From positions 13,224 through 53,780 of the forward strand of contig JAUNWX010000012.1 of the NCBI GenBank assembly GCA_030540075.1: a stretch of DNA of 40,557 nt, written 5' to 3'. The notes under the pieces are model-generated. The model was not told where the DNA came from, did not search any database, and saw only the letters and a program-made list of their open reading frames with translations. Numbering within the stretch: the first letter of the stretch is position 1; the number at the start of each line of letters is the position of its first letter. The position numbers and the translations under genes are program-made. Of this stretch, positions 16,918-34,819 are shown in pieces. The DNA is from Lachnospiraceae bacterium. GTDB lineage: Bacteria > Bacillota > Clostridia > Lachnospirales > Lachnospiraceae.

Positions 16918-16981
16918 TGATAATATTCCGGAGCCAATGCTTCCATGCGGCACCCGCCCTTCGCATTCCTGCGTTTTCCGT

Positions 16982-17914: not shown

Positions 17915-18045
17915 CACGAAGTCTCCTTCCTTTCCATACTTCATACGGAATCGGCCATATCCATCCGACCGCTACAGTTCATTTCATACATATATGGTCA
18001 TGATTTCCCGTCTTTTGTGTATACACTCTTCGCCTCCTGCTCCCG

Positions 18046-19026: not shown

Positions 19027-19154
19027 TTCTTATCCATCTCATTTCCGTGCCTGCGCCTGATTTCCATATGTCTCTATCCATTCATCTTTTCCACGTTCCC
19101 GTAGAACCGTCTTCAGACGCATCCTCATCCTTTCAATTTCAGATTCTCTCCGCA

Positions 19155-20198
19155 CTAAATCACTTCCATCAGTACATCCAGCACGCCACCGCAGACCATG
19201 CCTTCCTCGGACGCCGCATCATCTGTAAGGTCCACATGGTAGAGAATCGGCTTCGGATCTGCATCGAGCAGCATCTCGCGGCCACGTCGCATGACATCCG
19301 CCTCGACGCAGCCGCCACCGATGGTGCCGATACAGCGTCCATCCGGAAGAATCAGCATCTTCGTCCCGACCTCCCGCGGTGCCGAGCCCTTGCGGGTCAC
19401 GATCGTCGTGAGGATCTTCCGCCCCTCCATCGGGCGCTCATGCGGATTCGCACCCAGGATGGCATCCAGGATCTCCTTCGGATAGCCGAAGTTCCGCTTC
19501 TTCTGATTCTTCACCTCGATGATCTCGGCCATCACCGACACCGCGATTTCTTCCGGAGTCTCCGCACCGATGGCGAGCCCGATCGGCGTATACACCGCAT
19601 CGAGCACCTCACGCGAGATGCCCTCCTCTGCGAGCTTCTCCTTCACGATGCGCACCCGCCGCTTCGACCCCATCAGGCCGATGTAGGCGTGCGGCTTCCG
19701 TGCGATCACCCGCAGGCAGTCCTGATCCCAGCGGTGTCCCCGCGTCACGATGACGAAGTAGGTATCCCCATCCCCCGGAATCTGCTCCAGGGCCTTCATG
19801 AACTCATCGCAGATCACCTGATCGGCACCTGCGATCCGGGCATTGTTCGCAAACATCGGTCGGTCATCGATACAGGTCACCCGACAGCCGATCATCCGTC
19901 CGATCTTGATGATCGGCATCGACACATGCCCGGCGCCCAGCACGACAAGCTTCTTCTCGTGTCCGAGCAGCTCCGCGTAGATCCGCTTTCCGCCGATGTC
20001 GAGGATCCCGCTTTCAGAAACCGCTGCCGCTTCTGCCGCATGCTGTGTGAAAAATCCGTCTGCATCCGACATCCATGCGATTTCGTGATTCGAAATCAGC
20101 GCCTTTTCACCGAAGCCCTCACCCTCCAGCAGCGTCAGAATATAGTTTTCATAATTCGGATTCAGCCCGCTGATTTCTTCATAAAGTTCTGTTCCCAT
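19155..20198 (-). CDS. XdhC/CoxI-family molybdenum hydroxylase maturation factor, permuted domain order
   Basis: XdhC proteins carry and insert sulfurated molybdenum cofactor into xanthine-dehydrogenase-family enzymes. Here the Rossmann half comes first (VVLGAGHVSMPII about residues 84-96, IDDRPMF, GLMGSKRR about 174-181). The CoxI half comes last (TRKGSAPREVGTKML, GTIGGGCVEADV, MVCGGVLDVLMEV). Canonical XdhC has the CoxI half first, so the order is permuted. A related aldehyde-oxidoreductase maturation family may share this order. The start at 20198 has GGAGGA 6 bases upstream. It sits directly behind the MoeA-like gene. Its probable client is the hydroxylase at 30083-35457. Confidence 0.88.
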   Translation of the reverse strand: MGTELYEEISGLNPNYENYILTLLEGEGFGEKALISNHEIAWMSDADGFFTQHAAEAAAVSESGILDIGGKRIYAELLGHEKKLVVLGAGHVSMPIIKIGRMIGCRVTCIDDRPMFANNARIAGADQVICDEFMKALEQIPGDGDTYFVIVTRGHRWDQDCLRVIARKPHAYIGLMGSKRRVRIVKEKLAEEGISREVLDAVYTPIGLAIGAETPEEIAVSVMAEIIEVKNQKKRNFGYPKEILDAILGANPHERPMEGRKILTTIVTRKGSAPREVGTKMLILPDGRCIGTIGGGCVEADVMRRGREMLLDADPKPILYHVDLTDDAASEEGMVCGGVLDVLMEVI

Positions 20199-20219
20199 TT
20201 TTTCTTCCTCCATCAGATC

Positions 20220-21254
20220 TTACGCGTAGGCACCGAAGCCGCAGTTCGGGAAGGTACAGCTCGCGCAGTGCTGGCAGTATCCGCCGACGCCGAGCCGGTC
20301 AATGTCTTCCTTCGTCACGATATCACCGGCCATCACACGAGGCAGGATCAGGTCGAAGATCGTCCGCCCCGCATACATCACACAGCCCGGCAGGCCCAGC
20401 ATCGGAATCTCATCGTGCGCCCCCTTATAGGCCAGCATGAACATCGCGCCCGGCAACACCGGCGCACCATAGCTCACCACCCGATCCGCCGTCTTTCCGA
20501 TGGCGTACGGTGTCTTGTCATCCGGATCGACGCTCATACCACCCGTGCAGAGCACCATATCCGCCCCGGCTGCCAGCACCTTTTCGATGCACGCGATCTC
20601 CATCTCCGGATCATCCGAGCTGTACTCATGCGCGACCACCTCGGCCCCGAAGGCCTCGATCTTCGCCTGCACCACCGGCGTAAAGGTATCCTGGATTCGT
20701 CCGTAGTACACCTCGTTGCCCGTCGTCACGATACCCACCTTTTTATGCTGGTATGGCAGGAGCCGGAACAGCGGCTCATTTCCCACGAGCTTCTGCACAG
20801 CTTCCATCTTCTCCTTCTCGATGATCAGCGGGATGATCCGCAACCCGGCCACATGCTGGTCCTTCTTTACGGGATAGTTATTGTGAAGCGAAGCGATCAT
20901 CATCTGGCCGTAGGCATTGACCTGCTGCAGTCGAGCGACATCGATCTTCAGAAGCCCGTCACAGTCCGCGATCAGCTCGATTTTTCCTTCCTTGATATCC
21001 TCGTTCCGGCGCAGATGCTCGTTTTTGCAGAGATCGTACAGCACCATCGCCGCATCGTTCTCATGCATCATCGTCTCATTGACCTCCCAGATGTAGATAT
21101 GGTCCTTTCCGACGGAAAGCAGCACCGGCACATCCTCCTCCGTGATGATATGTCCCTTCCGGAACACCGGTCCTTTCTTTACGCCCCGGATGATCTGTGT
21201 GATGTCATGACAGAGCATCTGACCCACCGCATCTTCTGTTTTCATCAGCTTCAT
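20220..21254 (-). CDS. MoeA-like molybdopterin-binding protein with C-terminal cysteine cluster
   Basis: The core (about residues 170-300) is a MoaB/Mog-type molybdopterin-binding fold, with VGIVTTGNEVYYGRIQDTF, VLCTGGMSVDPDDKTPYAI and the PVLPGAMFMLAY and GLPGCVMY stretches. That places it near MoeA, which inserts molybdate into adenylated molybdopterin. It is shorter (344 residues) than classical MoeA. It ends in YCQHCASCTFPNCGFG with four cysteines (about C327, C330, C333, C338), possibly a metal or Fe-S site. Such short versions accompany XdhC and MobA-like genes. AGGAG precedes the ATG. It is 4 bases after the phosphatase-HD gene, so tightly coupled. Confidence 0.85.
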   Translation of the reverse strand: MKLMKTEDAVGQMLCHDITQIIRGVKKGPVFRKGHIITEEDVPVLLSVGKDHIYIWEVNETMMHENDAAMVLYDLCKNEHLRRNEDIKEGKIELIADCDGLLKIDVARLQQVNAYGQMMIASLHNNYPVKKDQHVAGLRIIPLIIEKEKMEAVQKLVGNEPLFRLLPYQHKKVGIVTTGNEVYYGRIQDTFTPVVQAKIEAFGAEVVAHEYSSDDPEMEIACIEKVLAAGADMVLCTGGMSVDPDDKTPYAIGKTADRVVSYGAPVLPGAMFMLAYKGAHDEIPMLGLPGCVMYAGRTIFDLILPRVMAGDIVTKEDIDRLGVGGYCQHCASCTFPNCGFGAYA

Positions 21255-21257
21255 ACT

Positions 21258-22490
21258 TCATCTCCTGTTTTTTAAGATTTTCTTTTCGATTTTCAGCGTT
21301 TTCGCGAGCATCGCATCGTGCTTCGCACAGGCCTCCGGCGACCGACATTTCTTCCGGCTCTCCCGGAAGCGCTCCTCCACGGACACCAGCACATCCTCCT
21401 GTACGCGTTTATCCGCATAGAAGAGGATCTCCGCCTCCGTGAGGGGTCCCTGCGCCTCCCGCTCGCTGTACGCCGCCTCATGATGTCCCGCGACGAGCGC
21501 CGCGATGGCAGGATATCCCTCCTTCCGTATCGCCTCCGCCGACACCCGCGCATGCTGCTTCTCCGCCCGGCAGAGATCATGAAGGAGACAGGCCTTTATC
21601 ACACGCACCCGGTTCAGCCCGGGCATCACCGCTGCTTTCTCCATCTCTACCGCAAGTACGCAAGAATCGCTCGGGGCGCTCACCGTATCTTCCCCTGTTG
21701 CATCTATGCTTCGGATTTTCCTTCCGCGCATCTGTATGCCGTCCATCAGCTGCATTGCGAGCTCGGCGACCTTCCGCATATGGCGGATCACCCGTGGTGG
21801 CGTCTCGTATTTCTGATACAACCGTGTGATTTCTGCCGCATCCAGCAGTTCTTCCGGGCGTACGCCAATGCCGTCGGGCACCACACAGGTGCCCTCACTA
21901 TTTAACAGAAGCTCCGTGACCGATGCGTACGGCAGCGGGATGTCCATCAGATGATCGAGCTCCCGCCCCGTCAACAGGCTGAGGTATACACGGATCACGC
22001 CGGCATGGGCGACGATGAGGAGGCTTTCCGACTCGTCCAAATCCGGCAAATACGCCTCGATGGCCTTCTGAAATCGGACACCGGCCTCGAGAAAACTCTC
22101 TCCTCCGGGTGTAGGGTACGTTCCGAGTGCACGCCCCCGTGCCTCATACACCTCCGGAAAATGTTCCCTGATTTTCTGAACGCGCTTCCCTTCCCACTCT
22201 CCGAGGTTGATTTCATGTAGCGCTTCGACGACGGACGGTTCCGAAAGTTTGATTCCTCCATCGGAGAGCACACGGTATATTTTCTCCGCCGTCTGACAAC
22301 ATCGCTGCAGCGGACTGGTCAGAATGCGAACCGTGGTAGTCGCCGACAGATGATGGAGGAAATACCGCCCGAGCTGAGCTGCCTCGGCGCTTCCCCGCGT
22401 ACTGAGCGGGATGTCGGTCACGCCAATATATACTTTTTCACTTGTGCTTTTCTCCGGCATCCCGTGCCGGATCAGATAGATCCGTCGCAT
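21258..22490 (-). CDS. Histidine phosphatase-HD domain fusion in the molybdenum operon
   Basis: Residues 1-205 form a phosphoglycerate-mutase-like histidine phosphatase, with the RHG motif at 8-10 (YLIRHGMPE) and a second catalytic histidine in VAHAGVIRVYL. Residues about 230-410 form an HD-type metal phosphohydrolase, with H237, HD at 304-305 (CLLHDLCRAEKQH) and GHHEAAYS. A low-complexity insert (about 258-287) separates HD elements. I start at 22490, where GAGGAT precedes MRRIYLIRHG; the frame opens with a GTG at 22502. In some anaerobes these domains occur with a MobA-type transferase near molybdenum hydroxylases. Here the transferase is a separate gene. The substrate is unknown; a phosphorylated pterin or nucleotide is a guess. 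Confidence 0.82.
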   Translation of the reverse strand: MRRIYLIRHGMPEKSTSEKVYIGVTDIPLSTRGSAEAAQLGRYFLHHLSATTTVRILTSPLQRCCQTAEKIYRVLSDGGIKLSEPSVVEALHEINLGEWEGKRVQKIREHFPEVYEARGRALGTYPTPGGESFLEAGVRFQKAIEAYLPDLDESESLLIVAHAGVIRVYLSLLTGRELDHLMDIPLPYASVTELLLNSEGTCVVPDGIGVRPEELLDAAEITRLYQKYETPPRVIRHMRKVAELAMQLMDGIQMRGRKIRSIDATGEDTVSAPSDSCVLAVEMEKAAVMPGLNRVRVIKACLLHDLCRAEKQHARVSAEAIRKEGYPAIAALVAGHHEAAYSEREAQGPLTEAEILFYADKRVQEDVLVSVEERFRESRKKCRSPEACAKHDAMLAKTLKIEKKILKNRR

Positions 22491-22590
22491 TTCCATCCTC
22501 ACTACGCATACTCATACGCGATGATACATTTCTGCATCTGTCCGCGATGACAAGCTGTATTTCCGTCTTCCTCACCGGACGACGCCTGAT

Positions 22591-23619
22591 TTACAGAGAG
22601 AGCCCATCGCCTGCTCCACTTTTCACCAGCACCGCTGTGCCATGGAGGTCCATGAGTGGTACCACGAAAAGCTCGTGCGCGCGGCAGTACTCGTCCACCG
22701 CCATCTTCACGCCTTCAAACTGGCAGCTCGTATAGTCGTGGATGAGGATGCGTCCACCCGGGGCGAGCCGCGGATAGAAGTAGCGGAGCCCCTCGAGCGT
22801 CGGCTCATAGAGATCCGGATCCAGACTCACCAGCGCGAAGCAGGGTTCACTTCTATCTTCATGCTGCGGTTCACACGCAGCCGATCCGTTCCCGGACGCC
22901 CGCATCACGTTCCTTCCAAATGTCTGCGGAGCTCGCTGTATCTCCTCATCTCCTCCGCCCTGTTCCGCGTTGCTTCCGGATAGCACTTCAAAATCCAGGC
23001 CCTCCAGACTCGCTGGAAAATAGCCCTGTACGAATCGGGCCATCTCGGGATGCGGCAGGCGGCTGCGCACGAGATCGATCGTAGTATCCGCGAAGCTCCG
23101 ACGCTGTGTCTTCACCCCGGTTCGCGTTTCCTCAATGGCGAGATCGCGCGCATGAAAGCCCTCGAAGGTATCGAAGAGCCAGAGCCTTCGTTTCGGAAAC
23201 AGTCGATTGATCTCCGCGGCAAACGCCCCCTGGTACACGCCGAGCTCCGCGACATCGCCAGGGATTTTCCGTGCTTCGATCTCTCGTGCATGGAGGCGCA
23301 GGGCCGACAGCCGGACATCCTGTATCGCCCGTAGGCTTCCCAGACGGATGCAGTCTCCGGAAAAACCAGCCGCCTCGATCTGCTTTCGGATCAGCTGCTC
23401 TGCCTCCGCGTTCAGAATCGCGAGGATGATTTCCTCCGGATGAAGCTGCAGTGCTTCTTCCAGGCTCAGCACAGGCAGGCCATCCAGCATCTTTCCCTGC
23501 TTTTCCTTATCATTATCGGTAAAACACATGAGCTCCTGCGTGGCCGGTAGCCAGGTCCGCACCATCATGCCCGCCTGCCCGGCACCGAAAATGGCGATCC
23601 GTTTTGTGTCTGTTTTCAT
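22591..23619 (-). CDS. TylF-like methyltransferase with N-terminal Rossmann domain
   Basis: Residues 5-90 form a Rossmann-like nucleotide-binding fold (IAIFGAGQAGMMVR, MCFTDND). Residues about 115-335 resemble TylF/macrocin O-methyltransferases: GDVAELGVYQGAFAAEINRLFP is the SAM-binding region, WLFDTFEGF follows, and VSLDPDLYEPTLEGLRYFYPRL with ILIHDYTS completes it. Asx/Gly/Ser-rich residues about 213-259 interrupt the fold. I start at 23619 (MKTDTKRIAIF), behind a GGAAGGGG site. Its place between the MobA-like and phosphatase-HD genes, in the same direction, suggests a link to cofactor or enzyme maturation, but methyl acceptor and product are unknown. A sugar or peptide modification role is an alternative. 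Confidence 0.75.
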   Translation of the reverse strand: MKTDTKRIAIFGAGQAGMMVRTWLPATQELMCFTDNDKEKQGKMLDGLPVLSLEEALQLHPEEIILAILNAEAEQLIRKQIEAAGFSGDCIRLGSLRAIQDVRLSALRLHAREIEARKIPGDVAELGVYQGAFAAEINRLFPKRRLWLFDTFEGFHARDLAIEETRTGVKTQRRSFADTTIDLVRSRLPHPEMARFVQGYFPASLEGLDFEVLSGSNAEQGGGDEEIQRAPQTFGRNVMRASGNGSAACEPQHEDRSEPCFALVSLDPDLYEPTLEGLRYFYPRLAPGGRILIHDYTSCQFEGVKMAVDEYCRAHELFVVPLMDLHGTAVLVKSGAGDGLSL

Positions 23620-23714
23620 TTCCCGTCCCCTTCCTGCGATCTCGATCTTGCGTCGCACTGTTTCGTTCACGCCTACGCATGCGGCCGCGGCCAGACATAA
23701 ACGCACATCGCAGC

Positions 23715-24698
23715 TTAGGTATCCCCCATATCGCCATGCAGATTCGACTTTTTCAACCAGTCCCCATGGAGGAAGATCTCATCGAACTTCTGCTGCACGA
23801 TCTCATTCATCTCCCGCTCGAGCTGCTCATACAGCAGGATCAGCTTCTCTCCATGCTTCGAGATCACCGACTTGCCACCATACTTTCCGCCCGGCTGACG
23901 CTCGACGATGCGGTAGCCCAGTTCATTTTCACAGTCATGGATGATGGTCCAGCCCTTACTATAGGAGATGCCGCACTTCTCGCAGGCCTCCCGGACACTG
24001 CCGGTCGACGCGATCTGTCGGAACAGATTCACGGTGCCCGGTCCGAAAAACGGCTTCGAATTACACAGTCGCACCCGGATATCCGGTCGCATCAGACGTG
24101 CATTATGAAGATCCAGCAGATTCTGATAATCCTCCTTCGTATCGGCATCCATCACCGCGCCGTCGTCGTCGACGCCGATCTGCAGCACCCTGCCTGCGCC
24201 GGTCTTTTCAAAGGACTCGTAGGCGCCCCGCATCCCGCGTTCACCGGTATACTGAAGCACATACTCCACCGCCCGGTGACTGAGCAGGATCGGATGCCCC
24301 GGTCGTGCATGACAGTACGGCACGATGATATCCGCACTCTCCACACGATTCATCTCAGCCTTTACGGTTTCATCCGTAAAAAACGGCACATCGACCGGAC
24401 AGAAAAACACCGCATCGCAGCGATCCTTCAGATACGAAAAGCCGATACAGGCAGAGTCAAACATCCTGGTCGTCTCGTAGTGATCATTTCGCAGAAAGAC
24501 CACACCGGATCCCTTCAGGGACTTCTCCAGCTCCTCACCACGATAGCCCGTCACGATCGCGATATCCTGTATGCCTGCACGCTGAAAGTTCGTGATGACA
24601 CGGTCCGCGAAGGTCATATCCCCGATCTTCATCAGCTGTTTAAAATCATTCATTCGTTTCGACATCCCCGCCGCCACGATCACTGCTCCGAATCTCAT
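23715..24698 (-). CDS. MobA-type nucleotidyltransferase fused to ModE-like winged helix
   Basis: Residues 1-198 are a MobA/MocA-like NTP transferase: GAVIVAAGMSKRMNDFKQL, a VTGYRGEELE strand, CPVDVPFFTDE, RPGHPILLS and DADTKEDYQNLL. Such enzymes attach CMP or GMP to molybdopterin. Residues about 205-305 match ModE/LysR-type DNA-binding domains: FGPGTVNLFRQIASTGSVREACEKCGISYSKGWTII, followed by GGKYGGKSVISKHGEKL. This is the first gene of the molybdenum run, with AGGAG before the ATG. The fusion suggests a protein that both matures the cofactor and senses or controls the operon. An operator-like palindrome lies just upstream (24725-24736). Confidence 0.85.
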   Translation of the reverse strand: MRFGAVIVAAGMSKRMNDFKQLMKIGDMTFADRVITNFQRAGIQDIAIVTGYRGEELEKSLKGSGVVFLRNDHYETTRMFDSACIGFSYLKDRCDAVFFCPVDVPFFTDETVKAEMNRVESADIIVPYCHARPGHPILLSHRAVEYVLQYTGERGMRGAYESFEKTGAGRVLQIGVDDDGAVMDADTKEDYQNLLDLHNARLMRPDIRVRLCNSKPFFGPGTVNLFRQIASTGSVREACEKCGISYSKGWTIIHDCENELGYRIVERQPGGKYGGKSVISKHGEKLILLYEQLEREMNEIVQQKFDEIFLHGDWLKKSNLHGDMGDT

Positions 24699-24831: not shown

Positions 24832-25266
24832 TCATCCGGCTTCAATTCGACCATCCACTGCCGGATAGACGATGACGACCACGCCTTCTGCTTCCGTCAC
24901 GATCGTCTCTCCTCTTCGTAATTCTGCCCGAAGGTGAATCGCGCGACTGCCCGGTCTGTGCGCACTCACCCATGCACGTCCCTCGAGATGATCGCCGACA
25001 TAGGCGATCGTGCGATAGTTCACGTTTATATTTGCCGTCACGACGTCCTGCCCGGACCAGGCGCGGCCCGCATAAATCATCAGATTATCGAGGATGGATG
25101 CGGCGATGCCGCCATGCAGGATATGATCATAGCCGATGTAGTTCTCCTGCACGGTCCATGCGCAGGCCGCGCTTCCTTTCTCTGCATCCGTCTCAATCTC
25201 GATATGGGTTCCGATGGGATTCTTCTTTCCGGTGATAAAATCATATTCATATTTCAAGATCGGCAT
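24832..25266 (-). CDS. Hotdog-fold acyl-CoA thioesterase (PaaI/4HBT type)
   Basis: The 144-residue protein has a single hotdog domain. Its helix starts HGGIAASILDNLM (about residues 56-68), the HGG.....D pattern typical of PaaI-like thioesterases, and strands such as VVTANINVNYR and HLEGRAWVSA follow. It would hydrolyse CoA thioesters in the cytoplasm. An AAAGGAG site precedes the ATG. It is the last gene of the CoA-thioester group, 134 bases after the CoA-transferase with a strong hairpin between. It could release product or rescue CoA trapped as a dead-end thioester. Confidence 0.8.
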   Translation of the reverse strand: MPILKYEYDFITGKKNPIGTHIEIETDAEKGSAACAWTVQENYIGYDHILHGGIAASILDNLMIYAGRAWSGQDVVTANINVNYRTIAYVGDHLEGRAWVSAHRPGSRAIHLRAELRRGETIVTEAEGVVVIVYPAVDGRIEAG

Positions 25267-25400: not shown

Positions 25401-26999
25401 TCAGAATGTATCCTTCAGTCTGCCCCAGTTCTCCTGGAACAGTGCTGCATCCATCAGCTTTGGGCCACCCTCCGGCACGATCGGGCGGAAGCCCATATGA
25501 TCGAGCACCTGGGTCTGAAGATCGATGCCCGGTGCGATTTCAGTCAGCACGAGTCCCTCTTCCGTCCGCTCGAATACACAGCGTTCTGTGATATAGCTGA
25601 TCTTATTGCCCTTCTTCAGGCACTGCGCTGCATTGAAGGAAACCTGTACGCAGTGATCTACGAACTTGTTAAAGCGACCTTCCTGATCGATGTGTAGCTT
25701 TCCATCCTCCACATGGCACTCGAGTCCACCGGCGGTAAAGGTGCCCATGAAGATCGAGTGCTTCGCGTTGGCCGAAATATTCGGGAAGCCACCACAGCCG
25801 GCGATCTTGCCATTCAGGTAGGTGGTATTGACATTACCATCCTTATCCACCTCCGGAAGTCCGAAGACACCGGCGTCGAGTCCACCATGGTCGAAGAAAC
25901 TGAAGAAATCGGTCTGATTCACCATCGCAATCGGATTGAAGTGTGCACCGAAATCGCCACCCTGCGCCGGCACACCGCCGATGAGTCCAGACTCGGAAAG
26001 CATCATAATCTGATCATCGACGCCCTCCTCCATCAGAATACTCGGGACGAGACCCGGCATGCCGATGCCGAAATTGCACTTCATGCCATGATGGAATTCC
26101 GCTGCGGTTCGACGTGCGATCACCTTCCGATGATCAAACGGAACCTCCTGCTTCGCGTCTCCGAGTGGTACGCGGATCTCTCCGGTGAACGCCGGATTGA
26201 AGTGAGTGATATGCGTCTGCATCGAACGCTCCGGATGCTCTTCGACGACGACATAATCGACGAGGATGCCTGGGATCTTGACGGTCCTCGGATCCAGAGA
26301 GCCTGTCTTCGCAACGCGCTCGACCTGGGCGATGACGATCGCACCGGAGGCCTTGGCTGCCATCGCGAGATCCAGCGGTTCACATGGCATACACTCCTTT
26401 TCATAGCTCAGGTTGCCGTCTTCATCTGCAGTTGTGCCACGAAGAAGGGCGACGTTCAGCTTCGGAAGGGTATAGAAGAGATACTCCTCTCCCATAAAAT
26501 CCGGAATATGATAAACGAGCTGTTTGCCTTCCTTCTTCGTTTTTTCGTTGATCATCGCACCGTCAAAACGCGGATCGATATAGGTTCCGAGGCCGACCTT
26601 CGTCATCAGTCCAGGGAAACCACGACCGATCTCTCGCCAAATCTGTCCGACGATGCCGAGTGGGATATTGTACGCAAGGATCTTATTATCCGTGATGTTC
26701 TTGATCATTTTAAACGAACAGCCAACATGCCCGTGGATCGAGCAGGTCAGAAGTCCATCCTCTGCCAGGGCATCCTCACCACGTGTCTTCTTTTTTTCAG
26801 GATCCATACGTCCGAAATCGCCCTGTCCTGCGCCGTGAATATGTGTGATTCCTGCCGGATGTCCGCACTCCTTAAAACGCGCCTGGATTGCGAGCCCGAT
26901 TTCCTCCGGCCATCCGGTCATCCCCTGCACTGCCGAACCGATGACTGCGCCATCCGGAATCAGCTCCGCTGCCTGTTTCGGTGTAATAAATTTTGCCAT
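25401..26999 (-). CDS. Family-I CoA-transferase, fused alpha-beta (propionate/acetoacetate CoA-transferase type)
   Basis: This enzyme moves CoA from an acyl-CoA to a free carboxylate through a glutamyl-CoA intermediate. The alpha half opens MAKFITPKQAAELIPDGAVIGSAVQGMTG and contains GAGQGDFGRMD. The beta half holds the catalytic glutamate in MMLSESGLIGGVPAQGG (E336), the family SESG/SENG site. At 532 residues it is a single-chain fusion like Pct or YdiF. AAGGA precedes the ATG. It lies 14 bases after the acyl-CoA ligase. This pairing suggests the ligase primes the pathway with ATP and the transferase then recycles CoA from product to incoming acid. The natural acyl group is not readable. Confidence 0.92.
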   Translation of the reverse strand: MAKFITPKQAAELIPDGAVIGSAVQGMTGWPEEIGLAIQARFKECGHPAGITHIHGAGQGDFGRMDPEKKKTRGEDALAEDGLLTCSIHGHVGCSFKMIKNITDNKILAYNIPLGIVGQIWREIGRGFPGLMTKVGLGTYIDPRFDGAMINEKTKKEGKQLVYHIPDFMGEEYLFYTLPKLNVALLRGTTADEDGNLSYEKECMPCEPLDLAMAAKASGAIVIAQVERVAKTGSLDPRTVKIPGILVDYVVVEEHPERSMQTHITHFNPAFTGEIRVPLGDAKQEVPFDHRKVIARRTAAEFHHGMKCNFGIGMPGLVPSILMEEGVDDQIMMLSESGLIGGVPAQGGDFGAHFNPIAMVNQTDFFSFFDHGGLDAGVFGLPEVDKDGNVNTTYLNGKIAGCGGFPNISANAKHSIFMGTFTAGGLECHVEDGKLHIDQEGRFNKFVDHCVQVSFNAAQCLKKGNKISYITERCVFERTEEGLVLTEIAPGIDLQTQVLDHMGFRPIVPEGGPKLMDAALFQENWGRLKDTF

Positions 27000-27013: not shown

Positions 27014-28705
27014 TCAGCTGAATCTCGTATGCTCAGCTGCTATCTTCTTCAGCTCTTCCTTTGCAATCTTACCGGAGCCGGTCAGTGGAAACTGTTGCAG
27101 GATTTCGATTTCTTCCGGAATCTTGATGGTTGAAATCTTCCCTTTACAGTCACTCCGTAGTTCTTCCAGGCATAGTTCCTGCTCCGGCTTCAGGATCAGA
27201 AATGCATAGACACTCTCACCGAATTCACGATTCGGCGCGCCCACGACACAGGCATCCTCGATTTTCGGATGCTGGCGTAAAAAGTCTTCGATTTCCTTCG
27301 GACTGATGTTCTCTCCACCCCGGATGATGATATCCTTGCATCTTCCTTTCAAACGGATGATGCCATCCCGATCCACTGTAGCGATGTCTCCGGTGCGAAG
27401 CCATCCATCCTCGAACGCTTTTTCTGTTTCTTCGATGTTCCGAATATACCCCGCCGTAACACAGGGGCCCTTGATACAGATTTCACCGACCTGATTCTCT
27501 CTCAGCGTGATGCCGGTAGCGAGGTCACGAATCTTCCACTCAACCATGGGCCAGAAACGGCCGACGGTCGTTGACACCATCCGAAGTGGATCCTGTAGCT
27601 CTGTGCTACTGATCCCTGGTCCTGCTTCCGTCATCCCATACATCACCATGAAATGATCGATATGCAGAACCTCCGATGCATGTCGGAACACCTCCTCCGG
27701 ACAGCTCGCTCCGGCGATCACGCAGAGACGAAGATGGAGCTTCTGCTCACCTCCGATTTCTTCTGCATGATGCATCAGTCGAAGGAGAATCGTCGGAACG
27801 CAGCTCATCACCGTACACTTTTCCTTCACCAGAAGCTCCAGCACACCCTCATGCTTCAGATCATCAAACAGCACCATCGTAGCACCGGCCATCAGTGTCG
27901 TCAGCATGCTTCCGATGCAGCCCAGCGAGTGGAACAGCGGAGCCGTCACACACAGCCGGTCATCTGTCGTCATCTTCATATAGTGCACATGTTCGAGTGC
28001 ATTCAGCATCATCTGTCGATGCGTCAGCGGAACGCCTTTCGGGGTACCGCTCGATCCGGACGTATGGATGATCGTGGCGGTCTGGTCCATGTCCAGCTGC
28101 TTCGCCCGATCTTCCAGCAGCTGGTCGGAGCACTGTTCTCCTGCCTTCAGGATCTCATTCAGCTGCCATGCACAGCCTTCCGCTCCTCCCCCACCGGTCA
28201 CGATGATATGCCGAAGCTTCGGCAGCAGTACTGTCTGCAGCCTGCCGGCAGTCTGCGTCTTCAATTCCGGACAGATTTCATACAGCATTTCCATATGATC
28301 CCGGTTTTTCATCCGTTGCTTTATGATCATTATGCTGCATTCAGTATTCTCCAGAAGCCGTCGCAGCATATCCGCTTTTTCATGGATATTCACATTGACG
28401 AGCACTCCACCAGCCTTCGAGATGGCAAGCTTCGTGACGACATGCTCCCAGCAGTTATCGATGATCACCGCCACATGATCGCCCTGCCTGAGTCCCAGAT
28501 GAATCAGCCCCTTCGCCAGATCATCACTGACTGTATCGAGTTCCTGATACGTGAGGCGTCGATCATGCAGATAATCTATCACCGCGAGATGGTCCGGATA
28601 CCGGGAGGCCTGAAGATGAATCAGCTCTCCCAGCGTCCGATTCGAAATGGAGCCACGATATGGATCATCGTCTCTTCGATTTTCGATCAACTGCGATTTG
28701 TCCAT
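27014..28705 (-). CDS. AMP-dependent acyl-CoA ligase
   Basis: An ANL-superfamily enzyme that activates a carboxylic acid with ATP and CoA. The P-loop-like motif IIHTSGSSGTPKGVPLTHRQ is at about residues 212-231. YGMTEAGPG (about 354-362), the hinge GRCKDIIIRGGENISPKEIEDFL and the C-terminal catalytic lysine in TGSGKIAKEEL are all intact. Its 563 residues are normal for medium-chain or aromatic acid ligases; specificity cannot be told from the sequence. It is preceded by the transporter and followed by the CoA-transferase with short gaps, all one direction. Confidence 0.93.
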   Translation of the reverse strand: MDKSQLIENRRDDDPYRGSISNRTLGELIHLQASRYPDHLAVIDYLHDRRLTYQELDTVSDDLAKGLIHLGLRQGDHVAVIIDNCWEHVVTKLAISKAGGVLVNVNIHEKADMLRRLLENTECSIMIIKQRMKNRDHMEMLYEICPELKTQTAGRLQTVLLPKLRHIIVTGGGGAEGCAWQLNEILKAGEQCSDQLLEDRAKQLDMDQTATIIHTSGSSGTPKGVPLTHRQMMLNALEHVHYMKMTTDDRLCVTAPLFHSLGCIGSMLTTLMAGATMVLFDDLKHEGVLELLVKEKCTVMSCVPTILLRLMHHAEEIGGEQKLHLRLCVIAGASCPEEVFRHASEVLHIDHFMVMYGMTEAGPGISSTELQDPLRMVSTTVGRFWPMVEWKIRDLATGITLRENQVGEICIKGPCVTAGYIRNIEETEKAFEDGWLRTGDIATVDRDGIIRLKGRCKDIIIRGGENISPKEIEDFLRQHPKIEDACVVGAPNREFGESVYAFLILKPEQELCLEELRSDCKGKISTIKIPEEIEILQQFPLTGSGKIAKEELKKIAAEHTRFS

Positions 28706-28724: not shown

Positions 28725-29966
28725 TTACTTCATACTTTCTCTGAACTTTACGAGAAGGAAAATCAGCACGATCGCCACGATGCCAAATACACCGACGATC
28801 GTCAGCGGCATCGCATAGGATCCACCGGACTGCTCCATCAGACTCGTAAAGAACTTCGGTCCGACATAGCCGCCGAGCGCGAAACCGATAAACATGATGC
28901 CGTAATTGATGCCATTGTTCTTCGGTCCAAAATTATCTGCCGTCAGCGCCGGATATACACCCATGGAACCACCATAGCATGCTGCAATCAGCATAGCAAA
29001 AATCAGGAACATTCCATACGACTGATTTACGCGCGATAAGCAGAAACCACTGATCGCCACGAGGCAGCCCATCGCCATCAGCGCCTTATAGCGTCCGATC
29101 TTATCTGAAATCGAACCCCAGAGAAGACGACCACCGGAATTCGCGATACCGATGAACGATACCGTATACGCCACGAGTGCGCTCTCCTTCGGCAGTCCGC
29201 CGATGGTCTTCGCCATACCGGTCGCCGATTGAATCACGAAGAGACCGGCTGACGAGAAGCAGAGGAACGCGATCACAGCTACATAATAACGTTTGTCCCG
29301 GATCATTTCATTCCAGCTGTAATTCCTAGGTGCCGGACCATTTTTCTTCGGTGCAGGTGGTACGTATCCATCCGGCAACCAGCCTTCCGGTGGAGCCGAG
29401 ATGAAGAATCCACAGATAAATGCGACGATGCCGATCAGGATGGCAAGTATCATGAAGGTCTTCAGTACGCCAATGCTGCCGATCAGAGGTCTCAGCACGA
29501 ACGGGAAAAGAATGGACCCCAGTCCGAAGAAAGCGGTTGTAAGACCTGCAATCGTACCGCGCATTTCCGGGAACCATAATCCGGTGTTGGTGGTCGTGAT
29601 ACCATTGATCATGCCGACACCGAAACCGGCGATGATGCCGAAGCCGATCCATACCATCGGCACACTGTGTGCCATACTCGTCATCAGAAGACCCAGTAAG
29701 GTCAGCACCGCTCCGATTTTGATGACGCCTCCGGCACCAAATTTTTTCTTCATCGCACCGCCGGTAATCATGGTGATCGGCCCGACACCTGTATTAAAGG
29801 TAAATGCCAGTGCCAGCGAAGAAGCCACCACTGTCGCACCGAAAATTTCTTCCGACTCACTCATAAATCCGGACTGGAAGATACTCCAGCAGTACGTAAT
29901 ACCGATAAAGACGTTGACGATGCAGCTGGCTGCTACAACCGTCCATCTTTTCTTCATATAATCCAT
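28725..29966 (-). CDS. OFA-family major facilitator transporter
   Basis: About twelve transmembrane segments fill the 413 residues. The N-terminus (MDYMKKRWTVVAASCIVNVFIGITYCWSIF) and INGITTTNTGLWFPEMRG are typical of the oxalate/formate antiporter family of small carboxylate exchangers. I start at the ATG at 29966, preceded by GGGAGGG; the frame otherwise opens at a TTG. It lies between the hydroxylase and ligase genes, so it likely imports the substrate acid, perhaps in exchange for the product. A short cytoplasmic loop, GWLPDGYVPPAPKKNGPAP, joins the halves. Oxalate itself is not implied, as no oxalyl-CoA decarboxylase is present. Confidence 0.88.
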   Translation of the reverse strand: MDYMKKRWTVVAASCIVNVFIGITYCWSIFQSGFMSESEEIFGATVVASSLALAFTFNTGVGPITMITGGAMKKKFGAGGVIKIGAVLTLLGLLMTSMAHSVPMVWIGFGIIAGFGVGMINGITTTNTGLWFPEMRGTIAGLTTAFFGLGSILFPFVLRPLIGSIGVLKTFMILAILIGIVAFICGFFISAPPEGWLPDGYVPPAPKKNGPAPRNYSWNEMIRDKRYYVAVIAFLCFSSAGLFVIQSATGMAKTIGGLPKESALVAYTVSFIGIANSGGRLLWGSISDKIGRYKALMAMGCLVAISGFCLSRVNQSYGMFLIFAMLIAACYGGSMGVYPALTADNFGPKNNGINYGIMFIGFALGGYVGPKFFTSLMEQSGGSYAMPLTIVGVFGIVAIVLIFLLVKFRESMK

Positions 29967-30039
29967 ACACCCTCCCTTCAAAGAAAAATTCTATTTCTGT
30001 GCGCACGTTATTTATTTAACGATGTTTGCTTTGGAAAGA

Positions 30040-30082: not shown

Positions 30083-32461
30083 TTATGCGTTTGCCATCCG
30101 CTCTACGAGATTTGAGATGAGTGCTCTGACTTCCTGCACCTTATAGGCGTTATACTGAAGCGGTGCAGCATCCTTTACAGCGATCTCTGCAGCCTCAGCA
30201 GCAACTTCCTTCGTAGGTTTCTTTCCGATCAGGAACGCTTCTACCTCCGGTCGTACCAGCGGAACCGGTGCCACTGCACCCAGAACCAGCTTCACATCAC
30301 GGATCACCCCATCCTCGAGCTTATACGCATATGCGAGAGATGCAATTGCGAAGTCGATCGAATCACGTACTCTGAATTTGTCATAGCCGGTCGTATATCC
30401 ATCCAGCTTTTCAAAACGAACTGCCTTGATCAGCTCACCCGGATTCAGCATATCGTATGCCTTGAGTTTCGTCGTAAAGAAATCCTTCGACCGAATGGTT
30501 TTCTCCGTTGTAATCAGTTCCGCATCCATCATCACCATCACCGGTGAAAGGTCGGAAGCATTCACCGAATAACATCCGCAGTCCATACATCTGCCGGCTT
30601 CCTGGATGGCTGTTTCCGGTGTAAAGGATCCCGTATCCTCGTCACTCAGTGTCCGCTCGGATACCGCACGTTCCGGAAGGACATGCATCGTGGTTTCCTT
30701 GATGGCATCCTTATCAAAGTGAAGGAATCCCTTCGTCTGCGGCCAGTGATACTCTTCTACGCCGAGATCCTTATTGATCGTGATAGCTGCAACACGGCCA
30801 CCATGAATCGCCTTGATGGCGAGGTTCGGTCCGGTAACCGCATCACCACCTGCATAGATCTTCGGATTCGAGGTCTTCGCAGTCTCGAGATCGGCATCGA
30901 TCAGACCTCTCGGGCTCTTCACCTGAGACAGGAAGTTCTCGCCGAGGAAGCTGATATCGACACGCTGTCCGGTAGCGAGGATGATATAATCCGACGCAAA
31001 GTTCATCTTCGTGCCGTAATCATACTGCGGATCAAATCTACCCTCTGCATTTCGTACGGAGGTACACTTCATGGACTCGAGTCCGTTGACCTTACCGTCT
31101 GCATCCGTCAGTACTCTGGAAAGACCCCAGCCATTAAAGATTTCGACGCCTTCTTCCTTCGCTCTGCTGACATCTTCTTCTGTCGCCGGCATCTCATCTG
31201 CCTGCTCGAGACAAACCAGCTTCACGGACTTCGCACCGAGACGCTTTGCGGTCATTGCAACATCCATCGCAACATTACCGCCACCACAGACGAGAATATC
31301 ATTACCGATGGCCTTCTGGAGATAGGTATTGACATCGACGAGGAAATTCAGACCGAACTGTGTCAGCTCCTCACCACCGATACCGAGAAGCGGCTGCTTC
31401 CACGCACCTGTACCGAGGTAGATGGCATCGTATTCCTGATCCAGCTGATCGAGGGTGATGTCCTTACCGATTTCCGTATTCATCCGGAACTCGACACCCA
31501 TCTTTTCAAGCTGAGCGGCATATCCGTCAACGATGTCCTTCGGCAGACGATAGTGTGGGATACCATACTGAAGAACACCACCCGCCTTCTCCATACGATC
31601 ATATACCACGACCTTTTCACCGGCACGACGGAGATAATATGCTGCAGTCAGACCACCAGGGCCTGCTCCGACGATGGCCACCTTTTTACCAGACTCCTGT
31701 TCCGGTGCCTTAAAATAGTCATCATAATGCGCGATGATATAATCACCGAGTGAACGCTCTACGGCATGGATATCGACCGGATCACCGTGCTGATTCTGAT
31801 TGCACTTCAGCTGGCAGTTATGCGGACATACCCTCGAGGTAACCATCGGCATAGGATTGTACTCGAGGAAGATTCTGGCCGCACCATCCCAGTCACCTTC
31901 ACGAAGCTTCGCCATGTACCCCGGAATATCCGTATTGCCCGGGCACTCATGGGAACATGGTGTAAACCCCGTCTTCATACCGCCATAGATGGAGTGATAG
32001 CGGTTCTGTCCCTGAATCGCGAAACACTCTTCACCACCCTTACGTGCGCAGTCGAGTCTTCCACCGATACCATTCGGATAGCGGTAGAACCAGCAACGTA
32101 CATCCTGGCAGAGGTTACCGCCGATGGTACCTTCATTACGGATGATCGGTGAAGCGATGGATTTCGCAGCTTCCTGAACGGCTGCTGCTCCTTTCGCAAT
32201 TTCCGGATTTTCTACGATCTTTGTCAATTTCGTCAGGGCACCGATTTCTATTGAGTTCCCTTCCTCTTTGATATAATCTCCATCCTGGATGGTTTTGAGA
32301 TTGACGACCTTCTCCGGTGCCTTCTTCAGGATCTTCTCCTTCATCACACCGACGAGGTCCGTACCTCCGGCGATGGCCACTGCCTTACCGGATTCTGTAT
32401 TCTTTAATAATGTGCTGGCTTCTTCAAAAGAAGCCGCACTCTCATAATCAAAATTTCTCAC
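30083..32461 (-). CDS. Molybdenum hydroxylase FAD subunit with an inserted GltD-like Fe-S/NAD(P)H oxidoreductase
   Basis: Residues 1-161 are the first part of a CoxM-type FAD-binding domain (AIAGGTDLVGVMKEK, RNEGTIGGNLCQDVRCWFYR, GQNRYHSIYGG). Residues about 162-629 are a complete GltD/NfnB-like module. They include Fe-S cysteines C169, C173, C212, C216 and C220, the FAD site VAIVGAGPGG (261-270), the NAD(P) site CGGGNVAMD (392-400) and AGGDAVTGPNLA (537-548). The CoxM domain then resumes at CYSVNASDLSPVMVMMDAEL (630-649) and runs to the end. The insertion lies exactly between GG and the C.AV.PSDLAP motif. C118, C123, C138 and C146 may hold a further cluster. It starts with GTG after AAGGAGG. 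It should feed NAD(P)H electrons to the molybdenum site. Confidence 0.9.
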   Translation of the reverse strand: MRNFDYESAASFEEASTLLKNTESGKAVAIAGGTDLVGVMKEKILKKAPEKVVNLKTIQDGDYIKEEGNSIEIGALTKLTKIVENPEIAKGAAAVQEAAKSIASPIIRNEGTIGGNLCQDVRCWFYRYPNGIGGRLDCARKGGEECFAIQGQNRYHSIYGGMKTGFTPCSHECPGNTDIPGYMAKLREGDWDGAARIFLEYNPMPMVTSRVCPHNCQLKCNQNQHGDPVDIHAVERSLGDYIIAHYDDYFKAPEQESGKKVAIVGAGPGGLTAAYYLRRAGEKVVVYDRMEKAGGVLQYGIPHYRLPKDIVDGYAAQLEKMGVEFRMNTEIGKDITLDQLDQEYDAIYLGTGAWKQPLLGIGGEELTQFGLNFLVDVNTYLQKAIGNDILVCGGGNVAMDVAMTAKRLGAKSVKLVCLEQADEMPATEEDVSRAKEEGVEIFNGWGLSRVLTDADGKVNGLESMKCTSVRNAEGRFDPQYDYGTKMNFASDYIILATGQRVDISFLGENFLSQVKSPRGLIDADLETAKTSNPKIYAGGDAVTGPNLAIKAIHGGRVAAITINKDLGVEEYHWPQTKGFLHFDKDAIKETTMHVLPERAVSERTLSDEDTGSFTPETAIQEAGRCMDCGCYSVNASDLSPVMVMMDAELITTEKTIRSKDFFTTKLKAYDMLNPGELIKAVRFEKLDGYTTGYDKFRVRDSIDFAIASLAYAYKLEDGVIRDVKLVLGAVAPVPLVRPEVEAFLIGKKPTKEVAAEAAEIAVKDAAPLQYNAYKVQEVRALISNLVERMANA

Positions 32462-32479: not shown

Positions 32480-34819
32480 TTATGCCTTGCCGATGGCGCT
32501 CAGAATCACGCCAGGAGTTGCAGGGTAGGTCTTGATATCCTTTCCGGTTGCATTGGAAATCGCCATCAGAACTGCACCACCGAGTGCCGCACCGGATACT
32601 TCACCGATGCCGAGTGCCTTAAATACATAGGTATCGATCTGCGATTCCATGACGTATGCGTCATAGGTCGGGAATTCATTGAAGGTTCTCATCTTATACT
32701 CGAGCATGCTTGCGGTCACCAGACGTCCGGTGATCGGATCCTGTAAGCACTCCTCCATCGATGCCGTATCTACACAAGCAGATCCGATGCCACCATGCAG
32801 CTGCATCTCTACCGCCTTCGGATCGAGGATCTGTCCGATATCCGTTCCTGCACCGATATGGAGCAAGCGCTGACGACCCGTCTCGAGGTCGACCTCGACA
32901 TCGACGAACACAGCGATACAGCTCGGAATATTGAAGAGCTCCAGGTGCTTACCATATCCACAGATGGAAAGCTCCTTATCGCAGAGCTTAAACATCGGAA
33001 CCATAAGCTCAGGTGTATCTCGCACATAAACCATATAGTCCTTCGTTTCCATCTGGTCGATGGATCTGTGGAAGTGCGTCGCTGCGAGCTCCAGAGCTTT
33101 CTGCTTACACTCCATCGCTGCCAGCGTCGCTGCCTTACCGGTCGTGATCGTACCTCTGGAACCGCAAAGACCATAGTTGGAAGGATTATACTTCGAACCA
33201 GGGTCCGTGATATAGACCGTCTCTACCGGCACATTAAGAATTTCTGCCACCTGCTTAACTACATTTGATCTCGTACCCATACCAGACTCGGTAACATCCA
33301 TCTCGATCACCGTCTTCGATGCTCTCGGCTTACCTACGAGATCCGGGATGATACGACAGATACACTCTGTATTATCCTCGTTGATATCAGCATTACCGAT
33401 GACGCCCATGCCGACGCCTCTGGCCTTCTTGCCATTCGGGCTTACCCAGTACGGCTTATTCCAGCCGACCCACTTCTTATCCCAGTCGAAACGATCCGCA
33501 GCACCCTGCATCGCTTCTGGGAAGAACATCGAGGATCTGGACTGCCACCAGCGGCCATCACGCCACTGGAAGCGATCGCCCGGTGCCACGTAATTCTTCT
33601 TAAATACATCCAGCGGATTGAGATTTCCTTCCTTCATTGCAGTCGCCATGAGACGCTCGAGACAGCTATTCAGCTCCTGTCCGCCATAGCCACGTACGAT
33701 ACCGGCAGCCTGCCGATTCGTAACGGCAATTTCAGAATCCATATCCCAGTTTGCGCACTTCGCACATACGAGCTGCGCCTCGCCGAGACCGACACCGACC
33801 TGGCCCTGAATCGAGTCTGCGATGGATCCGGTATCTACCAGCCACTTGCCCTTAATCGCATTTACGATGCCATCCTTCGTGATACCGATTTTGGCATTCA
33901 TGATGGATCCCAGACGAACCTCATAGCAGGTCAACTGCTCTTCCTTGGTCATGACCACCTTTACCGGCTTACTGGTCACACGGGACAGCATACATGCGGA
34001 AAGGACAGTCGTCATAAGGGACTGCTTATTACCATAAGAACCGCCGACATTGAACGTACGAACATCGAAGTTGGAGTGATCGATACGGCCTTCGGCCATA
34101 AGCTTCAGGATATGGGAAGACTGAGAAGATGCCCACAGGGTATAATCTGTTCCTCCCGTCCACTTTGCGATGGCAGACGGTGTCTCCGGTGCGGCCGGTG
34201 ATGGCATCTTATCAAATTCCACGCGGTCCTCTGCGACATAAGCACATTCAGCGAACGCTGCTTCCGGGTCACCACGACGGATCTGCCACCACGGACCATC
34301 CGGCTGGAAATACTTGATACCGTTGTCTACATGATTTCCAGGAAATCTCTTATAAAGCTGCGGTGCACCTTCCTTCAGAGCATCCTCTGCATTAAATACA
34401 GCCGGAAGCTTCTTATACTCGACGTCGATCAGATCGAGAGCTTCTTCTGCGATTTCCAGCGTATCAGCGGCAACCAGTGCGACGACATCACCGACACACC
34501 AGACCTCATCCTCGAGAAGATGACGATGTACCGGAAGACCGAGTCCCCACTGCTCCGGAACATTCTTATAGGTCACGACTGCACGTACTCCCGGAAGTGC
34601 CTCTGCCTTCGTCGCATCGATGGATAGAATCTTTGCATGCGGATACGGAGAACGCAGGGTTTTACCATACAGCTGTCCAGGAACATTAAAATCATCCAGA
34701 TAGGTTGCATGTCCGGTCACGATATCCTTGGCATCGATTCTCGGGGTATATTTACCAACATGACGATAGTTCGGCTGAACCACATCACGGTAATTCATTT
34801 TCTTATCTGCTGCACTCAT
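32480..34819 (-). CDS. Molybdenum hydroxylase large subunit (xanthine dehydrogenase/4-hydroxybenzoyl-CoA reductase family)
   Basis: This 779-residue catalytic subunit binds molybdopterin. The N-terminal hammerhead domain (GHATYLDDFNVPGQLYGK) is followed by cofactor-binding motifs GGSYGNKQ (259-266), RGYGGQE (376-382), GSRGTITTGKA, and the catalytic glutamate in ALGIGEVSG (E740). The glutamate that binds purine in xanthine dehydrogenases (GGFGGKE) is replaced by glutamine here, and EP.A motifs differ, so purine as substrate is unlikely. AAGGAGG lies 9-10 bases before the ATG. It sits between the 2Fe-2S and FAD subunits, with 14- and 18-base gaps. The cluster context favours an acyl-CoA substrate; the reaction direction is unknown. 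Confidence 0.92.
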   Translation of the reverse strand: MSAADKKMNYRDVVQPNYRHVGKYTPRIDAKDIVTGHATYLDDFNVPGQLYGKTLRSPYPHAKILSIDATKAEALPGVRAVVTYKNVPEQWGLGLPVHRHLLEDEVWCVGDVVALVAADTLEIAEEALDLIDVEYKKLPAVFNAEDALKEGAPQLYKRFPGNHVDNGIKYFQPDGPWWQIRRGDPEAAFAECAYVAEDRVEFDKMPSPAAPETPSAIAKWTGGTDYTLWASSQSSHILKLMAEGRIDHSNFDVRTFNVGGSYGNKQSLMTTVLSACMLSRVTSKPVKVVMTKEEQLTCYEVRLGSIMNAKIGITKDGIVNAIKGKWLVDTGSIADSIQGQVGVGLGEAQLVCAKCANWDMDSEIAVTNRQAAGIVRGYGGQELNSCLERLMATAMKEGNLNPLDVFKKNYVAPGDRFQWRDGRWWQSRSSMFFPEAMQGAADRFDWDKKWVGWNKPYWVSPNGKKARGVGMGVIGNADINEDNTECICRIIPDLVGKPRASKTVIEMDVTESGMGTRSNVVKQVAEILNVPVETVYITDPGSKYNPSNYGLCGSRGTITTGKAATLAAMECKQKALELAATHFHRSIDQMETKDYMVYVRDTPELMVPMFKLCDKELSICGYGKHLELFNIPSCIAVFVDVEVDLETGRQRLLHIGAGTDIGQILDPKAVEMQLHGGIGSACVDTASMEECLQDPITGRLVTASMLEYKMRTFNEFPTYDAYVMESQIDTYVFKALGIGEVSGAALGGAVLMAISNATGKDIKTYPATPGVILSAIGKA

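What the first reader, a model, noticed from the sequence alone, without database searches (positions are those of the whole stretch)
30083..32461. A whole GltD-like oxidoreductase nested inside a CoxM FAD domain
The CoxM domain is split at the junction between GG (residue 161) and the C.AV.PSDLAP motif (residue 630). About 470 residues of a GltD/NfnB-type flavoprotein with its own Fe-S cysteines, FAD site and NAD(P) site lie in between. The host domain resumes in register. This gives one chain with two flavins and several clusters, enough for NAD(P)H-driven reduction of a difficult substrate and conceivably for electron bifurcation.
Basis: seen in the sequence. Interest (0 to 1): 0.85.

Follow-up and report, generated by a model that had tools for sequence, protein, structure and literature searches.

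The report
NADH module nested inside molybdoenzyme subunit
A bacterium carries a molybdenum-enzyme subunit with a complete electron-feeding flavoprotein inserted in the middle of one of its iron-sulfur cluster loops, a rare but conserved design that probably lets NADH drive the enzyme directly.

Summary
Window 30083-32461 (-) encodes one 792-residue chain. A xanthine-oxidase-family FAD subunit (CoxM/HcrB type) is interrupted after residue 161 by a GltD/NfnB-type flavoprotein and resumes at C630. With the insert left out, the host matches solved relatives without a break. Twelve aligned copies from eleven genomes share the layout and four unfused relatives show the empty site, so it is not an artefact.

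(1) The insert sits between the third and fourth cysteine ligands of the host's own [4Fe-4S] loop. (2) The insert is circularly permuted relative to NfnB, so its ends meet at one cluster. Eleven cysteines and one glutamate, invariant in 11 of 11 complete copies, can be assigned to three [4Fe-4S] clusters, two of them linked by C628-x-C630. (3) A conserved acidic residue suggests NADH rather than NADPH.

Best reading: a built-in NADH-to-iron-sulfur wire for reductive chemistry, here probably on a CoA-activated carboxylate. One relative without any MoCoBD_1 (Mo-subunit) match in its genome pairs the chain with a fumarate-reductase-like flavoprotein. Electron bifurcation has no specific support. 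Substrate, direction and structure are unproven; the structure prediction failed.

The parts
31979..32461 (-). Host N-terminal half, residues 1-161: FAD_binding_5 with the AGGTDL and TIGGN FAD motifs and three cysteines of the host [4Fe-4S] loop (C123, C138, C146)
   Evidence: Pfam; alignment; cysteine positions
30575..31978 (-). Insert, residues 162-629: permuted GltD/NfnB-type flavoprotein module
   Evidence: the inserts of 11 copies form one clade (SH-aLRT 100, quick tree) against 21 stand-alone GltD proteins
31733..31963 (-). Fer4_20 region of the insert with C169, C173, C212, C216, C220 and E235
   Evidence: Pfam; all invariant in 11 of 11 complete copies
30797..31687 (-). Pyr_redox_2: FAD site (GAGPGG) and NAD(H) site (GGGNVAMD) with E419 at the end of beta-2
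   Evidence: Pfam; E419 in 11 of 12 copies
30575..30727 (-). Permuted tail of the insert, residues about 579-629, ending EAGRCMDCG; equivalent to the N-terminus of canonical NfnB/GltD
   Evidence: tail HMM matches the N-terminus of 2 of 2 canonical proteins and the C-terminal side of the module in the 19 other stand-alone proteins placed (5.9-21.3 bits); best of 440 shuffled controls 4.9 bits
30083..30574 (-). Host C-terminal half, residues 630-792: fourth host-cluster cysteine (C630), PSD-type motif, CO_deh_flav_C at 699-769
   Evidence: Pfam
32480..34819 (-). Mo catalytic subunit (Ald_Xan_dh_C, MoCoBD_1, MoCoBD_2), with GGSYGNK, VRGYGG and GIGE motifs
   Evidence: the only MoCoBD_1 match in the genome
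34834..35457 (-). Small 2x[2Fe-2S] subunit (the ORF runs to 35646; the likely start is the ATG at 35457)
28725..29981 (-). MFS transporter, monocarboxylate/oxalate-formate type (322.9 bits against the NF049980 cut-off of 320)
27014..28705 (-). AMP-forming acyl/aryl-CoA ligase
25401..26999 (-). CoA-transferase
24832..25266 (-). 4HBT-type thioesterase
14133..24698 (-). Mostly molybdate uptake and molybdenum cofactor genes: ABC ATPase, permease and binding protein, MOSC/MoCF, MoaA-like, XdhC, second MoCF, MobA-like NTP transferase with a ModE-type domain; also a histidine phosphatase-HD protein and a TylF-like methyltransferase

Best explanation
The chain is the FAD/Fe-S subunit of a xanthine-oxidase-family molybdenum enzyme into which a permuted GltD-type NADH dehydrogenase module was inserted. 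Shown by sequence: the nesting, its conservation, the operon with a 2Fe-2S and a Mo subunit, and the invariance of twelve potential cluster ligands. Inferred: NADH reduces the insert's FAD; electrons pass through the proximal cluster (C173, C212, C216, E235) and the distal cluster (C169, C220, C625, C628) to the host cluster (C123, C138, C146, C630), then through the host FAD and two [2Fe-2S] clusters to Mo. C628 and C630 lie two residues apart and would serve different clusters, so distal and host cluster must be near each other; the insertion point itself makes the electron junction. Also inferred: the physiological direction is reductive, removing oxygen from an imported carboxylate activated as its CoA thioester. 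The NADH-linked wire is the firmer part (about 0.8); the reductive direction about 0.65; a CoA-thioester substrate about 0.5.
For: Domain layout. Unbroken host after removal of the insert. Empty site in four natural relatives (L059-L062). Twelve ligands invariant in 11 of 11 complete copies. Permutation, with the same domain order in StnC, whose GltD part passes NADPH electrons along a chain of [4Fe-4S] clusters (PMC10482914). Acidic residue at the end of beta-2 in 11 of 12 copies against YRR in NfnB, NfnL, StnC and 9bov. Operon with CoA ligase, CoA-transferase and carboxylate-type transporter, followed by Moco genes. Precedent for direction and donor: Ucdh, a xanthine-oxidase-family phenol dehydroxylase, works with NADH whereas 4-HBCR uses ferredoxin (PMC12771579). 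In G251 (listed as 100% complete, 0 MoCoBD_1 matches) the nested chain follows a fumarate-reductase-like flavoprotein and a small 2Fe-2S protein, which fits an electron-input module for reductases.
Against: No structure: the model had mean pLDDT 35, so cluster geometry and closure of the host fold are inferred from ligand patterns, which are partly recalled from DPD, NfnB and HcrB. The HcrB-type loop also occurs in the oxidative enzyme PaoABC (recalled), so it does not fix direction. CoA-ligase genes lie beside the window copy and beside two of the four unfused relatives, but BLAST with the window ligase and CoA-transferase found none in the fetched regions of the 11 other nested copies. L032 has Lys, not Glu, at the specificity position. 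XdhD with its small FAD subunit reduces urate with NADH without such an insert (PMC12507026). In L054 the host FAD motif itself diverges (SGGVDF for AGGTDL).
Confidence: 0.72

Rival explanations
1. Same architecture, oxidative direction: the Mo subunit hydroxylates its substrate and the nested module hands the electrons to NAD+, as in an NAD-dependent dehydrogenase.
For: Most xanthine-oxidase-family enzymes are oxidative (PMC12771579). The window Mo subunit keeps the GxGE and RGYG motifs and scores better to XdhA (321 bits) than to 4-HBCR alpha (273 bits), both far under their cut-offs.
Against: The closest enzymes in logic (Ucdh, 4-HBCR) are reductive (PMC12771579); the G251 copy stands with a fumarate-reductase-like flavoprotein; an ordinary FAD subunit already passes electrons to NAD+ (recalled), so a GltD module would be superfluous.
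Confidence: 0.25
2. Single-chain electron bifurcation: the insert's FAD splits NADH electrons between the Mo enzyme and a second acceptor such as ferredoxin.
For: The insert keeps the Glu (E235) and Arg (R305) positions of NfnB, and aromatic degradation in Rhodopseudomonas requires an Nfn homologue, AadN (PMC9973337).
Against: No NfnA- or HydBC-like partner gene among the annotated neighbours; StnC keeps the same Arg and does not bifurcate; all clusters can be assigned to one linear path.
Confidence: 0.06
3. Assembly or frameshift artefact, or a decaying gene.
For: None found.
Against: Open frame; same layout in 12 copies from 11 genomes; a named 53% identical homologue; invariant ligands.
Confidence: 0.01

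Closest known systems
4-Hydroxybenzoyl-CoA reductase HcrB/HcrA/HcrC (PDB 1rm6)
   Same: Three-subunit Mo enzyme whose FAD subunit carries an additional [4Fe-4S] cluster loop at the same place (alignment; the extra cluster is named in a reference title seen); reductive dehydroxylation (PMC12771579)
   Different: No GltD insert; ferredoxin donor; none of the three window subunits reaches the 4-HBCR cut-offs; HcrB C146 has no counterpart and the cysteine spacing follows 5y6q_B instead
Urolithin C dehydroxylase Ucdh of Enterocloster bolteae (PMC12771579; outline, passages and section 7 read)
   Same: Xanthine-oxidase-family dehydroxylase driven by NADH; molybdate-transport, Moco and XdhC genes induced alongside
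StnC of the Sporomusa Stn transhydrogenase (PDB 8oh5_C; PMC10482914, passages)
   Same: A GltD-type module in the same permuted order lying between parts of another Fe-S protein and wiring NADPH into it
   Different: Host is a NuoG/FdhF-type protein, Lys instead of Glu at the proximal cluster, NADPH not NADH
NfnB / NfnL (PDB 4ylf, 5jca)
   Same: Fer4_20 plus FAD and NAD(P) domains, proximal-cluster Glu, Arg near FAD
   Different: Not permuted, separate subunit, partner NfnA, bifurcating, NADPH
E. coli XdhD-YgfM and YgfK (PMC12507026, passages)
   Same: NADH-driven reductive chemistry by a xanthine-dehydrogenase homologue, and a flavoprotein with a Pyr_redox_2 domain in the same pathway
   Different: The flavoproteins are separate and act on separate steps; TIGR03315 (YgfK) 240 bits against a cut-off of 835

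Membership tests
Xanthine-oxidase-family FAD (medium) subunit | FAD_binding_5 followed by CO_deh_flav_C, in an operon with [2Fe-2S] and Mo subunits | tested here: met
4-Hydroxybenzoyl-CoA reductase | NCBIfam equivalog cut-offs TIGR03193/03194/03195 | tested here: not met
   137.9 of 257.8, 272.7 of 994.55 and 128.5 of 404.55 bits
4-Hydroxybenzoyl-CoA reductase | Extra [4Fe-4S] loop in the FAD subunit | tested here: met
   four cysteines C123, C138, C146, C630 invariant in 11 of 11 complete copies, spaced as in 5y6q_B rather than HcrB; the cluster itself not shown
4-Hydroxybenzoyl-CoA reductase | Dehydroxylates 4-hydroxybenzoyl-CoA | not testable with these tools
   needs assay
GltD/NfnB-type flavoprotein module | Fer4_20 plus FAD and NAD(P) Rossmann domains | tested here: met
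   Pfam over cut-off
GltD/NfnB-type flavoprotein module | A named NCBIfam GltD/NfnB-type family over its cut-off | tested here: not met
   best is PRK12771 at 422.5 of 516 bits
Nfn (electron-bifurcating) | NfnA partner subunit | tested here: inconclusive
   none among the annotated neighbours; the rest of the genome was not searched for one, and it holds two other GltD-type genes
Nfn (electron-bifurcating) | Measured bifurcation | not testable with these tools
   needs assay
StnC | GltD module between NuoG-type and FdhF-type parts | tested here: not met
   the host is a CoxM/HcrB domain
Ucdh | High identity (over 90% among Enterocloster homologues, PMC12771579) to UcdhA/B/C | not tested
   no Ucdh sequence was available; genus searches around three large genomes of the family found no nested copy and none was identified as Enterocloster

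The most novel reading that the evidence does not exclude
The permuted GltD cassette is a general plug-in that evolution inserts at Fe-S junctions to make enzymes NAD(P)H-driven (here in a Mo enzyme, in G251 beside a fumarate-reductase-like flavoprotein, in StnC in a NuoG-like host); I hold this milder form about even. At the boldest, the Mo-linked form bifurcates electrons within one chain, giving the Mo site electrons more reducing than NADH; the probability stated is for this boldest form.
Probability: 0.07. Interest if true: 0.92.

Novelty: new variant of a known kind. Interest (0 to 1): 0.68.

Why it matters
4-HBCR needs ferredoxin, while Ucdh, a gut enzyme of the same superfamily, works with NADH (PMC12771579), and what I read there does not say how NADH electrons enter. 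This subunit offers a concrete route: an NADH module fused at the host's own [4Fe-4S] site. It also gives a sequence signature to look for NADH-driven Mo reductases, and shows how a domain can be inserted inside a metal-cluster loop with all loop ligands kept, because the insert's permuted ends meet at one cluster. Very different catalytic partners (Mo subunits 24-70% identical to the window's, and one flavoprotein) suggest a reusable electron-input part.

Tried and rejected
A viral-contig scan gave one distant GltD only. In plasmids, 0 of 3 matching records (E up to 1e-60) covered 80% of the query.

I looked for the Enterocloster ucd genes to see whether UcdhA is nested: the genus of G100 has 2 held genomes, both with the nested gene; the genera of G306 (0 of 2), G203 (0 of 1) and G031 (0 of 2) gave nothing. 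None was identified as Enterocloster, so the question stays open. The key paper (Nat Commun 16, 999) is not held.

Single insertion versus two: the free host tree places the unfused clade among the nested ones (96/87 support; 97/83), which is against a single nested clade. The AU test, run without L054 and three long-branch CoxM rows, does not reject one nested clade (p 0.445). The insert tree gives one clade, against relatives drawn mostly from the same family and order. Loss of the insert in the unfused clade also remains possible.

Rows dropped: L049 is cut by its contig end and was left out of the insert and host trees. Eight of 30 stand-alone GltD loci (L004, L009, L015, L018, L020, L022, L028, L029) gave no frame, apparently because my script read only the plus strand, and L006 gave a frame that did not enter the tree; 21 were used.

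Papers: PMC9973337, PMC10482914 and PMC12507026 passages only; PMC12771579 outline with abstract, passages and section 7; others only in search listings. No title or abstract start in the listings describes this nesting; several of those listings were capped (for example 15 of 1,803), and subscription papers and supplements were not searched.

Full report
OBSERVATION. The ORF at 30083-32461 (-) is 792 aa, with a good ribosome site before its GTG. Pfam places FAD_binding_5 (3-119, cut short at profile position 113 of 170), Fer4_20 (167-243), Pyr_redox_2 (259-555) and CO_deh_flav_C (699-769) in one chain. NCBIfam agrees: GltD-type models match the middle, and 4-HBCR beta and XdhB models match in two stretches, of which the best starts at residues 4-6. 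Without residues 162-627 the protein aligns as one stretch to the FAD subunits of an aldehyde oxidase (5y6q_B, 124 bits, 3-316) and of 4-HBCR (1rm6_B, 87 bits, 29-295).

NOT AN ARTEFACT. A 53% identical protein with the same layout lies in a named MAG, Candidatus Scatomorpha stercoravium (L032; Clostridia); the other of the two loci from that scan, L033, matches the GltD part only. A query spanning the first junction (residues 1-330, E up to 1e-45) matched 7 of 397 genomes of the window's family, own included; 2 of 392 of the order, both already counted; and 8 of 398 of the phylum, of which 4 (own included) span the junction and 4 match only the host part. In the class of G934, 3 of 46 matched at 1e-60 (two of these, G1136 and G1137, were not aligned). 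None of the 16 other genomes of the window's genus showed a full-length match among the rows (E up to 1e-60), so the gene is patchy. In a sample of 299 family genomes, 107 have a FAD_binding_5 match; 6 of these 107 carry the nested form (G000, G100, G221, G229, G251, G348).

ANATOMY. I aligned 12 nested copies from 11 genomes (11 complete, one cut by a contig end) and four unfused relatives. In the unfused protein of L060 the loop reads NRYHAIMGGKK-CFAVCPSD; in nested ones the break falls after HS-[IVLA]-[FY]-G-[GA], and the host resumes at C-[YFL]-[SAT]-V-x-x-S-D. In 1rm6_B the four loop cysteines seen in the alignment fall at 122, 138, 146 and 155, the recalled cluster ligands; the nested host matches the pattern of 5y6q_B, with C123, C138, C146 and C630. 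The insertion therefore lies between ligand three and ligand four of one [4Fe-4S] cluster.

PERMUTATION. In NfnB and NfnL the segment EAxRCxxC comes just before the PCxxxCP motif; in the insert it comes about 450 residues later, at the end. A profile of the insert's tail matches the N-terminus of both canonical proteins available (L021 at 39-57, 15.7 bits; L033 at 70-90, 13.7 bits) and the C-terminal side of the module in the 19 other stand-alone proteins placed (5.9-21.3 bits, the weakest not significant alone); of 440 shuffled controls the best scored 4.9 bits. The direct pairwise alignments of that segment to NfnB and NfnL are not significant alone (2.0 and 3.6 bits). 9bov_A and 8oh5_C (StnC) have the permuted order over their full match. 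By the recalled ligand scheme of dihydropyrimidine dehydrogenase, the insert's distal cluster takes C169, C220, C625 and C628, and the proximal one C173, C212, C216 and E235. All twelve ligands are invariant in 11 of 11 complete copies. E235 aligns with StnC K170 (read from the alignment), where NfnB has Glu (PMC10482914). C628 and C630 would then hold two different clusters two residues apart.

NUCLEOTIDE. The end of the second strand of the NAD domain reads CLE or CVE in 11 of 12 copies and CRK in L032, against YRR in NfnB, NfnL and StnC, which use NADP(H) (PMC10482914). By the usual rule (recalled), this predicts NADH.

SURROUNDINGS. The gene follows the 2Fe-2S and Mo subunits. After it come a carboxylate-type MFS transporter, an AMP-forming CoA ligase, a CoA-transferase and a thioesterase, then genes mostly for molybdate uptake and Moco synthesis, including XdhC. 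The Mo subunit is the only MoCoBD_1 match of the genome and the nested chain its only FAD_binding_5 match (genome 93.6% complete). This suggests one dedicated pathway: import, CoA activation, Mo-dependent conversion, CoA recycling. The substrate is not identified; the enzyme does not reach the 4-HBCR cut-offs.

PARTNERS. In 10 of the 11 other nested copies the chain follows 2Fe-2S and Mo subunits, the latter 24-70% identical to the window's. In the four loci L055-L058 the Mo subunit lacks the GxGE and RGFG motifs; GISH stands at GxGE. In the eleventh, L054 (G251), the chain is preceded by a fumarate-reductase/succinate-dehydrogenase-like flavoprotein and a small 2Fe-2S protein that keeps one cluster motif and lacks the second. 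G251 is listed as 100% complete and has no MoCoBD_1 match, while the other 7 of 8 genomes tested do. The nested chain thus seems to be an electron-input part used with different catalytic subunits.

ORIGIN. The 11 inserts form one clade apart from 21 stand-alone GltD proteins (SH-aLRT 100, quick tree). The host tree interleaves the unfused clade (96/87), but one nested clade is not rejected (p 0.445). One insertion, perhaps with later loss, is the simplest reading.

MECHANISM. Proposed path: NADH, insert FAD, proximal cluster, distal cluster, host cluster, host FAD, two [2Fe-2S], Mo. Each step is inferred from ligand patterns and from StnC and 4-HBCR. A reductive direction is favoured by Ucdh, an NADH-driven xanthine-oxidase-family dehydroxylase (PMC12771579, section 7 read), and by the G251 case. 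Bifurcation is not excluded but has no specific support.

LIMITS. No usable structure, no substrate, no assay. Whether Ucdh's own FAD subunit is nested could not be tested. If it is, the function of this architecture is already demonstrated, though the parts I read do not mention it.

Noticed in passing
L055 10712-13066, L056 10842-13196, L057 13421-15844, L058 5029-7407 (all -): Mo subunits paired with nested chains lack the GxGE motif that holds the family's catalytic Glu (recalled role; GISH instead) and the RGFG loop in 4 of 4, so the chemistry may be unusual.
   Followed up: partly
L054 12023-17055 (+): Nested chain in a gene row with a fumarate-reductase-like flavoprotein and a small 2Fe-2S protein lacking its second cluster motif, in a genome listed as 100% complete with no MoCoBD_1 match.
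   Followed up: partly
window 23715-24698 (-): MobA/MocA-like NTP transferase carrying a ModE-type repressor domain at its C-terminus.
   Followed up: no
window 21258-22502 (-): Histidine phosphatase joined to an HD domain within the Moco gene set; related ORFs stand beside the NTP transferase in L055 and L056.
   Followed up: no
L003 313-3156 (+): 947-aa protein with ferredoxin motifs, a permuted GltD module and further Fer4 motifs after it; its GltD part is the best non-nested match to the window protein and shares CLE at the NAD site.
   Followed up: partly
L058 2188-4905 (-): Nested copy whose insert is about 110 residues longer than the others, with a Gly/Ala-rich stretch between the GltD core and its permuted tail.
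   Followed up: no
L057 3-3310 (+): Benzoyl-CoA-reductase/2-hydroxyacyl-CoA-dehydratase-type genes and an activase about 8 kb from a nested copy, on the other strand.
   Followed up: no
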